NCBI RefSeq assembly: GCF_035920345.1
Contig: NZ_CP109149.1
Coordinates: 5,146,001-5,210,000 of the forward strand
DNA length: 64,000 nucleotides
DNA from: Nocardia vinacea
GTDB lineage: Bacteria > Actinomycetota > Actinomycetes > Mycobacteriales > Mycobacteriaceae
Direction: 5' to 3'
In this document: piece by piece, positions 361-64,000 of the stretch
Position numbering within the stretch: position 1 is the stretch's first letter
How the letters are laid out: every line of letters starts with the position of its first letter
Made by a program: the position numbers and the translations under genes
The notes under the pieces: generated by a model
Database searches by the model: none
What the model saw: the letters and a program-made list of their open reading frames with translations, nothing else
Told to the model about the DNA's origin: nothing

Positions 361-989
361 GCGGGGGCTTGTAAAGCCGGGAACCAGATGTCGGTGAGGA
401 CGTCGGCAGCCTGGTCGGCCGAGACATCGATGGTGCCCTGCATGGCCCAGCGGGTGAAGAAGCGTTCCAGTTGGGCGACAAGGAGTTCGACGCGTAGGCG
501 CGCCTCGTCGCGACGGTCTTCGGGCCAGCGGGCGAGGTAGGAGGTCATGGCATTGGGCAGGGCCAGGATGCCGCGGCGGGCGATTTCGCGGAATTCCGGT
601 TCCAGTGCGGTTGCCTCGTCCCAGGCGGGCAGCAAGTCCTTGTATTCGTGGAACCAGGCGATGGCGCGGGTCACCCAGTCCACGAATTCCGGGCGTGAGC
701 CGGTGTCGAGTACCCGGTCCAAATCCTCGTAGAAGTGCAGTGCGGTCGGCGCGGTGCTCTGTTCGGCAATGGCGCGCAGGATCTCGAGTTTGCTGCTGAA
801 GTGCAGGTAGAAGGTGGCGCGGCTGCAGCCGACGGCGGCGGCGATGTCGTCGACCCGGACCGCCGCATAGCCCCGTTCGGTGAACAGCGCCTTGGCGCCG
901 TCCATCAGTCTGGCGCGGGTCTGCAGCTTCTGTTCGTCGCGCAGGCTCAGTCCGGGCGGGTTCGACTTGGTCGGCATGGTAGACATCAT
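357..989 (-). CDS. TetR/AcrR family transcriptional regulator
   Basis: A protein of about 210 residues with a typical N-terminal TetR helix-turn-helix (VDDIAAAVGCSRATFYLHF, about residues 45-65) and a divergent ligand-binding C-terminal domain. A GTG at 998 is possible, but it lies inside a perfect palindrome (996-1016). I therefore prefer the ATG at 989 (another ATG follows at 986), which puts the palindrome directly upstream as an operator. The gene is divergent from the flavin monooxygenase operon starting near 1132, so it probably represses that operon and itself; this is inference from position. It is convergent with the epoxide hydrolase, whose stop it overlaps. Confidence 0.85.
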   Translation of the reverse strand: MMSTMPTKSNPPGLSLRDEQKLQTRARLMDGAKALFTERGYAAVRVDDIAAAVGCSRATFYLHFSSKLEILRAIAEQSTAPTALHFYEDLDRVLDTGSRPEFVDWVTRAIAWFHEYKDLLPAWDEATALEPEFREIARRGILALPNAMTSYLARWPEDRRDEARLRVELLVAQLERFFTRWAMQGTIDVSADQAADVLTDIWFPALQAPA

Positions 990-60974: not shown

Positions 60975-61841
60975 ATGACGACGAGGCGGATGTGCGGGCC
61001 GATGCTGGCGCCGCGAGTGACGGTATTGGTGCGGTCGTCCGGGGTCGTGCAGTTGGGGTGGGATCCGGAGCGGGCGCTGCTACTCGATCGGACCGCATTG
61101 GATACCGACACCGTGCTGGCGTTTCTGCGGCTGCTGGACGGCATGCACAGTCGCCCGCAGGTCATCTGGCGGGCCGGGGAATGTGGGATCGAACCCGAGG
61201 ACGCGGCGGAGCTGCTGAATCGCATCGGTGACGCAGGGCTGCTGCTGCATCCGGATCCGCGGCTGGGGCGGGTGCGTTCGGTGCGGGTGCACGGGCTCGG
61301 GCCGCTCTCGGATGCGGTCGCGACCGGGTTGCGGCGGCTCGGACTGCGCCCGATCCGATCGCGCGGCTACCGCGGCGACAGTTCGGTGCTGGATTGGCAC
61401 GGTGAACTCGTGGTGCTGGCCGATTCGCTCGTCATCGAACCGCGCCTGGCCAATGAGCTGGTGCTGCACGGGATTCCGCATCTGCAGGTCCGGATTCGCG
61501 ATGGCAACAAGGGTATCGTCGGTCCGCTGGTCTTTCCCGGCCTGACGAGCTGTCTGCGCTGCCTCGACCTGACCCGCTGCGAGTACGACCCGGAGTGGCC
61601 GCAGCTGGCGAGCCAATTGCTCGGTCGGGTCGGGCACGCATCACCTGCCGGAATCCTGGCGACGGCGGCTTTGCTGCTCGGCGAACTCGAAGCGATCATG
61701 CACTGTTCCCCCGAGCGTCAACTCGACACCATGAACACCACGATCGAACTCGAACTCGATACGCACCGGATCTCGCGCCGGGAATGGCCGCCGCACGACG
61801 GCTGCGGATGCCGCCGAATTCTCGCTGGTAGCACTGGATGA
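60975..61841 (+). CDS. ThiF/cyclodehydratase-like protein (Rv3196-like)
   Basis: A 288-residue protein resembling ThiF/YcaO-partner proteins without a clear ATP-binding loop. Cys193 and Cys196 (SCLRCLDLTRC) and Cys277 and Cys279 (HDGCGC) likely form a zinc site as in E1-like and TOMM cyclodehydratase proteins. The segment VFPGLTSCLRC is a typical zinc-loop context. No peptide-precursor gene is seen. CATACT ends 6 nt before ATG 60975, suggesting a leaderless start. Its end overlaps the open frame of the following kinase gene, which however likely starts later (61925). Confidence 0.83.
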   Translation: MTTRRMCGPMLAPRVTVLVRSSGVVQLGWDPERALLLDRTALDTDTVLAFLRLLDGMHSRPQVIWRAGECGIEPEDAAELLNRIGDAGLLLHPDPRLGRVRSVRVHGLGPLSDAVATGLRRLGLRPIRSRGYRGDSSVLDWHGELVVLADSLVIEPRLANELVLHGIPHLQVRIRDGNKGIVGPLVFPGLTSCLRCLDLTRCEYDPEWPQLASQLLGRVGHASPAGILATAALLLGELEAIMHCSPERQLDTMNTTIELELDTHRISRREWPPHDGCGCRRILAGSTG

Positions 61842-61924
61842 GGGTGTCGATTCTTACAGTCCGCCAAGCAGAGACATCAAGATTGGCGTGGCGATTGCAC
61901 GGGTCCGTCCGCCATGATGGGTAC

Positions 61925-63268
61925 GTGTCTGAGATCGTGCGCCGTCGCTCGTCCCGCAATGCCAAGTTAGCCAAGATTCCGCTGGGTATCGCCGGACGAG
62001 CCGCTGTCGGGTTCGGTAAGAAGCTGGCCGGTGGCGATAAGGGGGAGATCAACGCCCAGTTGAACCAGAAGGCCGCCGAGCAATTGTTCACCGTGCTCGG
62101 TGAGCTCAAGGGCGGTGCGATGAAGTTCGGTCAGGCGCTGAGCGTCATGGAGGCCGCGGTTCCCGAGGAGTTCGGCGAGCACTATCGCGAGGCACTCACC
62201 AAACTGCAGGCCGCCGCGCCGCCGATGCCCGCCGAGACCGTGCACCGGGTCCTGGACCAGCAGCTCGGCACCCAGTGGCGGCAGCGCTTTCAATCCTTCG
62301 ACGACACCCCCGCGGCATCGGCGAGCATCGGCCAGGTGCACAAGGCGGTGTGGTCCGATGGCCGGACCGTCGCGGTGAAGGTGCAGTATCCGGGCGCCGA
62401 CCAGGCGCTGCGCGCCGACCTCAAGACACTGTCGCGGATGACCGGTCTGATCGCCTCGGTGATTCCGGGCGCGGATGTGAAGCCGCTGCTGGCCGAGATC
62501 ACCGAGCGCACCGAGGAGGAACTCGACTACCGCAACGAGGCCGCCAACCAGCGCACCTTCGCCAAGGCCTTCGATGGACATCCGGAGATCGTGGTGCCGA
62601 AGGTGGTGGCCAGCGCGCCGAAGGTGATCGTGACCGAATGGTTGGACGGCACTCCGGTCTCACAGATCATCAAGCAGGGGGCCGAGGATCCGGAGGGCAC
62701 GCGGGCGCTGCGCAATCGGGTCGCCGCATTGATGGGCAAATTCCACTTTTCCTCGCCGGAGACCGTGGGTCTGCTGCACGCCGATCCGCATCCCGGCAAC
62801 TTCATGATGCTGCCCGACGGCAAACTGGCCGTCATCGATTTCGGTGCCTGCGCGCCCATGCCGGACGGCTTCCCCGAGGTCCTCGGCCGGATGCTGGCCC
62901 TGGAACTCGACGAACGCTTCGATGAACTGGTCGAGCTCATGTACGACAACGGCTGGGTGATTCCGGGCCGGACCGTTACCGATCAGGAGATCGCCGACTA
63001 CCTGCGGCCGTTCACCGACCCGATCCAGACCGATTCGTTCCACTTCACCCGCAGGTGGATGCAGCGGGTGGCCGGTAAGGCCTCCGAGTTCAGCAGTCCG
63101 GATATGAAAACCGCGCGGGCACTGCAACTGCCCGCGCAGTACGTGATGATCTTCCGGGTGCTCGGCGGTTCGGTCGGCATCCTGGCCCAGCTCGATGCGG
63201 AGCTGCCGTTCATGCAATTGGTGCGGGCGTGGATGCCCGGCTTCCGTGAGGAGCGCTCCGCCAGCTGA
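61925..63268 (+). CDS. ABC1/AarF (UbiB-like) kinase family protein (Rv3197-like)
   Basis: A 447-residue atypical kinase: KxGQ motif (Lys67-Gln70 in GGAMKFGQALS), Ala-rich loop ASASIGQVHKA, Lys in VAVKVQYPG, catalytic HADPHPGN (His285, Asp287, Asn292) and DFG (Asp305). Such kinases act in lipid or quinone metabolism; Rv3197 has also been linked to macrolide tolerance. GTG 61925 matches the usual start (Ser-Glu-Ile after Met). CATGAT 6 nt upstream suggests a leaderless message. It ends at a strong terminator. Confidence 0.92.
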   Translation: MSEIVRRRSSRNAKLAKIPLGIAGRAAVGFGKKLAGGDKGEINAQLNQKAAEQLFTVLGELKGGAMKFGQALSVMEAAVPEEFGEHYREALTKLQAAAPPMPAETVHRVLDQQLGTQWRQRFQSFDDTPAASASIGQVHKAVWSDGRTVAVKVQYPGADQALRADLKTLSRMTGLIASVIPGADVKPLLAEITERTEEELDYRNEAANQRTFAKAFDGHPEIVVPKVVASAPKVIVTEWLDGTPVSQIIKQGAEDPEGTRALRNRVAALMGKFHFSSPETVGLLHADPHPGNFMMLPDGKLAVIDFGACAPMPDGFPEVLGRMLALELDERFDELVELMYDNGWVIPGRTVTDQEIADYLRPFTDPIQTDSFHFTRRWMQRVAGKASEFSSPDMKTARALQLPAQYVMIFRVLGGSVGILAQLDAELPFMQLVRAWMPGFREERSAS

Positions 63269-63293: not shown

Positions 63294-63338
63294 GCAAACG
63301 AGCCGCCCACCGGATCTCACGGTGAGCGGCTTGTTTGC
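63294..63338. terminator. Terminator between ABC1 kinase gene and whiB7
   Basis: GCAAAC/GTTTGC, AGCCGC/GCGGCT and CACCG/CGGTG pair in order with two single mismatches around a 7-nt loop, followed on the plus strand by TTTCTCGTT. It ends the convergent transcripts. Confidence 0.8.
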
Positions 63339-63415
63339 TTTCTCGTTCCTGGGCCCTGCCCGAATCCGAACCGGCCGGATAGGCCTCAGCGACCGGAGGG
63401 AGGGAATCGCAGATC

Positions 63416-63736
63416 TCATACCGAGATCGCGACCTTGCGTGGACGTCCACGCGGGCGCTTGCGGGCGATCACGACACCCTGGTCGAAGATCTCACCGCCC
63501 CAGACACCCCACGGCTCGCGCCGATCCATGGCCGCGGTCAGGCAGCCCTTTCGGATGGGGCAAGACGCGCACAGCGCCTTGGCCTGCTCCAACTGGACCG
63601 GGCTCTCGGCGAACCAGAGATCGGGATCTCCGGCTCGACAAGGCAGGACCTTTGTGACCTCCCGGGGGCGGGTGGGCCGTGCCACGGTTCGGCATGTCAC
63701 GTCAGTAGTGGCTTGTGGCCTCTCTGCGGTGAACAC
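63416..63736 (-). CDS. whiB7: WhiB7 transcriptional regulator
   Basis: A 106-residue Wbl protein. Four iron-sulfur Cys: Cys33, Cys56, Cys59 and Cys65. Then the sigma-binding turn EPWGVWGG (74-81) and an AT-hook RGRPRK (96-101), which is the hallmark of WhiB7. WhiB7 works with the main sigma factor SigA to activate intrinsic antibiotic resistance genes. GTG 63736 with AAGGAG 6 nt upstream fixes the start; the protein is somewhat longer at the N-terminus than M. tuberculosis WhiB7 (92 residues). A long leader with an intrinsic terminator lies upstream. Confidence 0.97.
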   Translation of the reverse strand: MFTAERPQATTDVTCRTVARPTRPREVTKVLPCRAGDPDLWFAESPVQLEQAKALCASCPIRKGCLTAAMDRREPWGVWGGEIFDQGVVIARKRPRGRPRKVAISV

Positions 63737-63816: not shown

Positions 63817-63861
63817 AAAAAAATACTGGCCACGGTTTCGCTTCGGGCGATCCGTGGCCAG
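63817..63861 (-). terminator. Intrinsic terminator in the whiB7 leader
   Basis: On the minus strand CTGGCCACGG pairs perfectly with CCGTGGCCAG (63852-63861 with 63826-63835) around a 16-nt loop, followed by TA and seven T (63823-63817). It lies about 80 nt before the whiB7 start. Confidence 0.9.
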
Positions 63862-63887
63862 GAGGTCGGGGAGTGTTCCCTACCTAG

Positions 63888-63905
63888 TTCGACATCTCTG
63901 TCGAA
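63888..63905 (-). promoter_or_regulatory. Leader hairpin between the upstream ORF and the terminator
   Basis: TTCGACA and TGTCGAA form a perfect 7-bp stem with a GAGA tetraloop, 6 nt after the stop of the upstream ORF. A stalled ribosome on the ORF could block or free this region. Confidence 0.65.
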
Positions 63906-63911
63906 TCCTGA

Positions 63912-63968
63912 TCACGGTCGCTGGGTGTGCGGTGCGGCGGAGGCGTGCCTGCAGATCTGCCGGTGCAT
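63912..63968 (-). CDS. Upstream ORF (18 residues) in the whiB7 leader
   Basis: ATG 63968, preceded by a GAGG-type site, opens MHRQICRHASAAPHTQRP and stops with TGA at 63912. It is rich in His, Arg, Pro and Ala. Translation of such an ORF is thought to report ribosome inhibition and so control the downstream terminator. Confidence 0.7.
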   Translation of the reverse strand: MHRQICRHASAAPHTQRP

Positions 63969-64000
63969 ATCCGGCCTCAACTGCGAAGACGCCGGCTTCT

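What the first reader, a model, noticed from the sequence alone, without database searches (positions are those of the whole stretch)
63817..63968. Complete whiB7 attenuation leader
An 18-codon ORF, a GAGA hairpin 6 nt after its stop, then a 10-bp stem with seven T, all before whiB7. The layout matches the translation-dependent attenuation known for whiB7, but the peptide here (His, Arg, Pro, Ala rich) and hairpin arms are particular to this organism. Ribosome stalling in the ORF would favour an alternative fold and read-through.
Basis: partly seen in the sequence, partly recalled or inferred. Interest (0 to 1): 0.7.

Follow-up and report, generated by a model that had tools for sequence, protein, structure and literature searches.

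The report
Nocardia whiB7 leader: attenuator, wrong uORF
The stretch before the drug-response gene whiB7 in this Nocardia looks like an on/off RNA switch of a known kind, but its sensor is most likely a long, genus-wide reading frame that begins outside the window and not the 18-codon frame first proposed.

Summary
The terminator, the GAGA hairpin and the 18-codon frame are at the stated coordinates, upstream of a WhiB7-type gene (minus strand). The attenuation reading is well supported; the assigned uORF is very probably wrong. The genome shows a 124-codon ORF with a strong Shine-Dalgarno and a whiB7-type promoter; it starts 254 nt beyond the window end and stops at 63880-63882, in another frame. 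In 145 Nocardia-genus leaders the ORF behind that Shine-Dalgarno runs 86-139 codons and stops 9-28 nt before the terminator core. The antiterminator arm is uORF segment 63906-63921: it pairs with the terminator's 5' side in 94 of 94 sampled leaders before the 3' arm is made, and in 1 of 94 once a ribosome's leading edge is 25 nt before the uORF stop. The GAGA hairpin is its conserved inner arm, not organism-specific. Another hairpin inside the uORF, beyond the window, covaries; its role is unknown. A self-hidden Shine-Dalgarno was tested and not supported. Verdict: new Nocardia member of the known whiB7/wblC attenuator family; no expression data.

The parts
63416..63736 (-). whiB7 (106 codons, GTG start; C-terminal RGRPRK, AT-hook-like)
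   Evidence: Pfam PF02467 58.4 bits, cut-off 23.6; 147 of 148 genus genomes have a match at E <= 1e-20; the AT-hook reading is recalled knowledge
63817..63861 (-). Rho-independent terminator: stem CTGGCCACGG (63852-63861) / CCGTGGCCAG (63826-63835), inner TCGC/GCGA, U-tract 63817-63823
   Evidence: -24.7 kcal/mol; 14 pairs, 93.7% of cells paired in 94 leaders
63847..63863 (-). terminator 5' side as seen by the antiterminator (TCCTGGCCACGGATCGC)
   Evidence: partner in the 15-pair antiterminator
63880..63882 (-). stop codon TAG of the long uORF
   Evidence: in 145 of 145 leaders the uORF stop begins 9-28 nt before GGCCACGG, 18-28 in 144
63888..63905 (-). GAGA hairpin TTCGACA-GAGA-TGTCGAA, inner arm of the antiterminator; inside the long uORF
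   Evidence: 84.8% of cells paired, 22 both-side-changed cells, reached by 0 of 500 shuffles; loop not conserved
63906..63921 (-). antiterminator 5' arm GCGACCGTGATCAGGA, uORF codons about 112-117
   Evidence: 94.5% of cells paired against 26.4-40.3% in slid controls; forms in 94 of 94 leaders before the 3' arm exists; synonymous codons nearly frozen
63880..64000 (-). in-window part of the long uORF (124 codons; full extent 63880-64254 in window numbering; ATG start behind AGGAGGGAGG)
   Evidence: L007:581-955; equivalent in 145 of 145 leaders; 33 homologous proteins
   Evidence: ATG at 18 codons plus stop in 6 of 128 leaders in which the place was found (17 of 145 not found); stop codon lost in 13 of 128

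Best explanation
It is the Nocardia form of the uORF-controlled whiB7/wblC transcription attenuator. RNA polymerase starts behind an AAAATAGG-TTGTCG-N17-TATGGT promoter, about 500 nt before the U-tract (outside the window; start point guessed). A ribosome loads on a strong Shine-Dalgarno and translates a 124-codon uORF. If it keeps up, it covers codons about 112-117 (the antiterminator arm) when the terminator's 5' arm appears, so the terminator forms and transcription stops before whiB7. If translation is slow, stalled or absent, the exposed arm GCGACCGTGATCAGGA pairs with TCCTGGCCACGGATCGC, enclosing the GAGA hairpin and a small GGGA/TCCC hairpin, and polymerase reads through into whiB7. Shown by sequence and comparison: the uORF, both predicted folds, their exclusivity and their conservation. 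Inferred: that the uORF is translated, that drugs or amino-acid lack trigger the switch, and the transcription start.
For: The ORF behind the conserved Shine-Dalgarno runs 86-139 codons in 145 of 145 genus leaders (stops TAG 136, TAA 8, TGA 1) and stops 9-28 nt before GGCCACGG; GGAGGGAGG stands within 25 nt of the start in 129 of 145. The other two sense frames are open over the same interval in 0 and 12 of 145. Promoter pattern in 145 of 145. Terminator and antiterminator pairs kept in 93.7% and 94.5% of cells. Antiterminator probability above 0.5 before the 3' arm is made in 94 of 94, and in 1 of 94 with the ribosome edge 25 nt before the uORF stop; terminator above 0.5 in 93 of 94 with the edge 12 nt past the stop (window leader alone). 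Codons of the antiterminator arm are nearly frozen at synonymous sites (Val GTG 142 of 142; Ala GCG 139 of 139) while Ala codons in the middle vary (A91: GCA 54, GCC 26, GCG 25, GCT 18). A terminator and a Shine-Dalgarno-led uORF before whiB7 were also picked in 56 of 70 non-Nocardia leaders. Published for mycobacteria: an anti-terminator using sequences shared by uORF and terminator (PMC10727445, passages; PMC9618640, passages).
Against: No expression, ribosome-profiling or drug data for this organism. The uORF pick took the longest ORF behind a Shine-Dalgarno-like site, so absence of stops in it is by construction. The terminator pairs show no both-side change, so their structure rests on identity. 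Antiterminator covariation is modest: 6 both-side cells, reached by 10 of 500 shuffles; percentage paired reached by 35 of 500. At equilibrium the terminator is preferred in 94 of 94, so the antiterminator must be a kinetic product. U-tracts in some relatives are poor (for example TATTCTCC). L176 has lost the inner hairpin, and 19 of 145 leaders have no perfect inner hairpin of 5 bp or more.
Confidence: 0.87

Rival explanations
1. The 18-codon ORF (63912-63968) is the sensing ORF, as first read.
For: It exists, with GAGG ending six nt before its ATG (sequence), and its stop would place a ribosome over the antiterminator arm (inferred from the edge scan). The TGA is present in 115 of the 128 leaders in which the place was found.
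Against: ATG exactly 18 codons upstream with the stop in 6 of 128; any ATG plus stop in 74 of 128; TGC in 8 and TGT in 5 (17 of 145 not located). The ATG is missing at its place in N. abscessus L040, and the stop reads TGC in N. coubleae L056 and TGT in N. transvalensis L072. The TGA triplet is explained by the RNA pairing of GTGATCAGG.
Confidence: 0.04
2. Both frames are translated: the long uORF is the sensor and the short overlapping ORF adds a clade-specific effect in the N. vinacea group.
For: The closest leaders (L008, L009, L011 with 18 codons; L010, L012 with 19) all carry the ATG and stop (the row of L011 was printed there).
Against: These leaders are very alike overall, so retention says little; translation is untested.
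Confidence: 0.06
3. The uORF product is a functional small protein, and the attenuator is secondary.
For: Conserved SASRGILALQGIGLS, QDKPSxGWHP with Trp in 141 of 142 distinct uORFs, and RLRxAHPATVIRxR; 33 homologous proteins.
Against: Two of these three blocks are largely frozen at synonymous sites and coincide with RNA helices; no Pfam or NCBIfam match at E <= 1; length varies 86-139 codons.
Confidence: 0.08

Closest known systems
Mycobacterial whiB7 attenuator (M. smegmatis, M. abscessus, M. marinum, M. bovis)
   Same: Related gene, AAAAT-TTG promoter pattern, Shine-Dalgarno-led uORF, Rho-independent terminator, antiterminator made of uORF-end and terminator sequence (PMC4128351 passages; PMC10727445 passages; loci)
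   Different: In the 10 of 15 named Mycobacterium loci that gave a pick, the uORF has 42-67 codons and 25-39% Ala; the Nocardia uORF has 86-139 codons (124 here) and 16.4% Ala on average. Nocardia leaders have a covarying hairpin inside the uORF; whether mycobacteria have one was not tested.
Streptomyces wblC attenuator (Lee, Lee and Roe 2022, not held; known here through citing papers)
   Same: uORF translation promotes the terminator; inhibited translation gives the antiterminator (PMC11550727 passages)
   Different: No Streptomyces leader was compared here; whether that paper already lists a Nocardia antiterminator could not be checked
ilvB1 attenuator of M. tuberculosis
   Same: Works alike: leader ORF, ribosome position chooses between terminator and antiterminator (PMC13236596 passages)
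   Different: Proposed to sense branched-chain amino acids through regulatory codons; other gene; no sequence relation tested

Membership tests
whiB7/wblC uORF-mediated attenuator | Downstream gene is a WhiB7 orthologue | tested here: met
   Pfam Whib 58.4 bits; one match at E <= 1e-20 in each of 147 of 148 genus genomes, although G000 holds six WhiB genes; no NCBIfam model hit at E <= 1, so orthology rests on similarity and on the leader
whiB7/wblC uORF-mediated attenuator | uORF with Shine-Dalgarno between promoter and terminator | tested here: met
   124-codon uORF behind AGGAGGGAGG; equivalent in 145 of 145 relatives; the 18-codon ORF is not conserved
whiB7/wblC uORF-mediated attenuator | Rho-independent terminator before whiB7 | tested here: met
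whiB7/wblC uORF-mediated attenuator | Antiterminator using sequences shared by the uORF end and the terminator | tested here: met
   predicted fold and conservation
whiB7/wblC uORF-mediated attenuator | AT-rich motif plus -35/-10 of the WhiB7-autoregulated promoter | tested here: met
   pattern AAAAT..TTG in 145 of 145; that it is the WhiB7 target motif is recalled
whiB7/wblC uORF-mediated attenuator | Induction by ribosome-targeting drugs or amino-acid starvation through the leader | not testable with these tools
   needs reporter or RNA-seq
Alanine-starvation sensing by an Ala-rich uORF | Ala enrichment of the uORF above background | tested here: inconclusive
   22 of 124 residues (17.7%) against 12.2% in 25 gene-like window ORFs, per-gene SD 3.1 points; synonymous share of codon differences 0.332 for Ala, 0.34 for Gly, so Ala is not singled out
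Self-sequestered uORF Shine-Dalgarno (SD gate) | SD less accessible once the anti-SD of the uORF is made, more than in synonymous shuffles | tested here: not met
   SD accessibility falls from 0.48 to 0.37, but shuffles give 0.36 (Wilcoxon p 0.31, 90 leaders); per-leader complementarity median p 0.21

The most novel reading that the evidence does not exclude
The Nocardia whiB7 attenuator has a second, start-proximal checkpoint: a hairpin inside the uORF (GAUCCUC/GGGGAUC, codons 25-44 in the window organism, followed by the well-kept GGUCUGUCC) that holds polymerase or couples it to the first ribosome, letting a uORF of about 110 codons act as an integrator of translation speed over its whole length and not as a single stall site.
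Probability: 0.3. Interest if true: 0.5.

Novelty: new member of a known kind. Interest (0 to 1): 0.32.

Why it matters
whiB7 controls inducible intrinsic resistance to ribosome-targeting drugs in actinomycetes. Fixing the likely uORF and antiterminator for Nocardia gives testable coordinates, suggests that a family of Nocardia 'hypothetical proteins' of 101-129 aa are whiB7 leader ORFs, and shows that a short ORF placed neatly before a terminator can be a by-product of RNA pairing.

Tried and rejected
1. The 18-codon ORF as sensor: rejected on conservation. 2. SD gate by intra-uORF anti-SD (GGGAGGC with GCCTCCC): 98.6% of cells pair and 7 cells change on both sides, but the two pairs followed on a tree changed twice each on the SD side, with one or no independent pair in step; complementarity is not unusual against synonymous shuffles (10 of 94 leaders at p <= 0.05; 0 of 45 non-Nocardia), and folding shows no extra occlusion (in the window leader P(SD with anti-SD) is 0.03). 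Not supported. 3. Pairing of the same box with the 5' hairpin: at least 8 bp in 62 of 94. 4. Ala-codon sensing as a special signal: inconclusive. 5. Rfam: no match at gathering score in the window's leader part; one sub-threshold match, E 1.4, on the other strand. 6. The tool's promoter/terminator scan listed neither the promoter nor the terminator. 7. Tree check of covariation: for the uORF hairpin about four of five independent pairs go the same way, none opposite, but fewer than six pairs cannot reach p 0.05; for the GAGA-hairpin pair two of five. 8. Papers on Nocardia whiB7 leaders: 'Nocardia, whiB7, leader' gave one paper, on M. smegmatis (passages), and 'whiB7, leader peptide, Nocardia' none, in an open-licence library only.

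Full report
What was checked. The gene downstream (63416-63736) is a WhiB protein (Pfam 58.4 bits). The genome (10.36 Mb, one contig) holds six WhiB genes; 147 of 148 genomes of the genus have a match to this one at E <= 1e-20, one each. The best named relatives in genome contigs are N. vinacea and N. anaemiae at 98%. So the window is from a Nocardia.

The leader is not complete in the window. DNA fetched beyond 64000 (L007; L007 position p is window p + 63299) shows a promoter-like AAAATAGG-TTGTCG-N17-TATGGT, a 5' hairpin, AGGAGGGAGG, and an ATG that opens a 124-codon ORF ending in TAG at 63880-63882.

Which ORF is real. I took 145 leaders of the genus (of the 147 genomes with whiB7; G015 and G140 missing). 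The script took the longest ORF behind a Shine-Dalgarno-like site 60-190 nt after the promoter pattern, so that it holds no stop is by construction. What is informative: it was found in 145 of 145, at 86 to 139 codons, starts ATG 121 and GTG 24, stops TAG 136, TAA 8, TGA 1; GGAGGGAGG lies within 25 nt of the start in 129 of 145; and it stops 9 to 28 nt before GGCCACGG of the terminator, 18 to 28 in 144 of 145, through whole-codon length changes. Over the same interval the other two sense frames are open in 0 and 12 of 145; one antisense frame is open in 116 of 145, which is common in GC-rich codon usage and a warning against trusting openness alone. The TGA is kept, I infer, because it lies in GTGATCAGG, a pairing segment.

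The switch. In 94 diverse leaders (picked; aligned) the terminator's 14 pairs form in 93.7% of cells, with no both-side change. The antiterminator, GCGACCGTG.TCAGGA with TCCTGG.CACGG.TCGC, forms in 94.5% of cells, against 26 to 40% when slid; four pairs (3 of 500 shuffles reach that) and six cells (10 of 500) change on both sides. The GAGA-hairpin stem forms in 84.8% with 22 both-side cells, which none of 500 shuffles reached; its loop is not conserved. Over all 145 leaders 126 have a perfect inner hairpin of at least 5 bp; L176 has lost it. In the window leader the 75-nt antiterminator segment folds at -37.1 kcal/mol as one structure that encloses the GAGA hairpin and a GGGA/TCCC hairpin; the terminator alone is -24.7; with both present the terminator is preferred. 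In 94 of 94 leaders the antiterminator has probability above 0.5 while the terminator's 3' arm is not yet made; with the ribosome's leading edge 25 nt before the uORF stop, in 1 of 94; with the edge 12 nt past the stop the terminator exceeds 0.5 in 93 of 94; with everything free at equilibrium the terminator exceeds 0.5 in 94 of 94. This is the order of events an attenuator needs, if the antiterminator is a kinetic product. The folding runs treat the ribosome as a hard edge and do not model kinetics.

Codon evidence. Codons of the antiterminator arm are nearly frozen at synonymous sites (Val GTG 142 of 142, Ala GCG 139 of 139, Thr ACC 111 of 112, Ile ATC 99 of 99 among rows with that residue), whereas Ala codons in the middle vary (A91 uses all four). 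A Trp is kept in 141 of 142 distinct uORFs. In the protein collection 33 relatives of the uORF product were found; those whose name gives an organism are Nocardia 'hypothetical' or 'uncharacterized' proteins, and none has a precomputed Pfam domain. Ala makes up 16.4% of uORF residues in the genus and 17.7% here, against 12.2% in 25 gene-like ORFs of the window; but the share of synonymous changes is the same for Gly, so I do not claim alanine sensing. The uORFs of 10 named Mycobacterium loci (of 15; five gave no pick) are much richer, 25-39%.

An extra element. Inside the uORF, beyond the window end, GAUCCUC pairs with GGGGAUC: 97.5% of cells paired, 40 cells changed on both sides, 38 of them at one pair, A-U to G-C, which alters Ile-Ile to Val-Thr in the peptide; no shuffle reached that cell count. 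On a tree built without the leader the two sides of that pair each change six times; about four of five independent pairs go together and none opposite, too few for significance. In the window organism the hairpin carries an in-frame insert in its loop. The 5' hairpin near the guessed transcription start also covaries (26 cells). I infer a role of the uORF hairpin in pacing polymerase against the first ribosome, as in classical attenuators (recalled), without direct evidence. A tempting alternative, that the uORF hides its own Shine-Dalgarno, failed its tests.

Comparison. A terminator and a Shine-Dalgarno-led uORF before whiB7 were picked in 56 of 70 non-Nocardia leaders; those of Mycobacterium printed mostly show TCCGTG near the uORF end and CCACGGA in the terminator. 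Published work, seen as passages: uORF, Shine-Dalgarno, terminator and attenuation before whiB7 in M. marinum and M. bovis (PMC4128351); an anti-terminator built from sequence shared by uORF and terminator, and an annotated uORF protein MAB_3509c (PMC10727445); the same account in reviews (PMC9618640; PMC11550727); weaker whiB7 induction in rpoB S450L (PMC13236596). The founding paper (Lee et al. 2022) and the alanine paper (Poulton et al. 2024; not held) were not read. The system is therefore a new, well-resolved member of a known kind.

Verdict. Ordinary in kind, with a real correction: right switch, wrong ORF, incomplete window. Interest 0.32.

Noticed in passing
L007 about 838-875 (-), i.e. 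window numbering about 64137-64174, beyond the window; also L011: The window organism and L011 carry an in-frame insert in the uORF at the loop of the covarying hairpin (124 codons against 113-114 in L008, L010, L012); the helix letters are kept.
   Followed up: partly
L016, L017, L021 and relatives, after the terminator stem: Several Nocardia relatives have a weak U-tract (TATTCTCC), so termination there may be leaky or factor-aided.
   Followed up: no
L176: A leader whose uORF ends in TGA after 86 codons, 9 nt before the terminator core, and which has lost the inner hairpin and the GGGA/TCCC element.
   Followed up: no
L174, L177, L198, L221: The alignment shows a gap in the inner hairpin, but GAGTCG/CGACTC still offers a 6-bp hairpin in a shorter form.
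   Followed up: partly
G253 (same order): Four whiB7-like matches in one genome, G195 two; the other 140 genomes with a match have one.
   Followed up: no
window about 63294-63340: By eye, an inverted repeat (GCAAACGAGCCGCCCACC with GGTGAGCGGCTTGTTTGC) between the ORF 61838-63268 (+) and the 3' end of whiB7 (-), possibly a shared bidirectional terminator.
   Followed up: no
proteins P0001-P0033: The uORF product sits in public records as an orphan family of Nocardia hypothetical proteins of 101-129 aa.
   Followed up: partly
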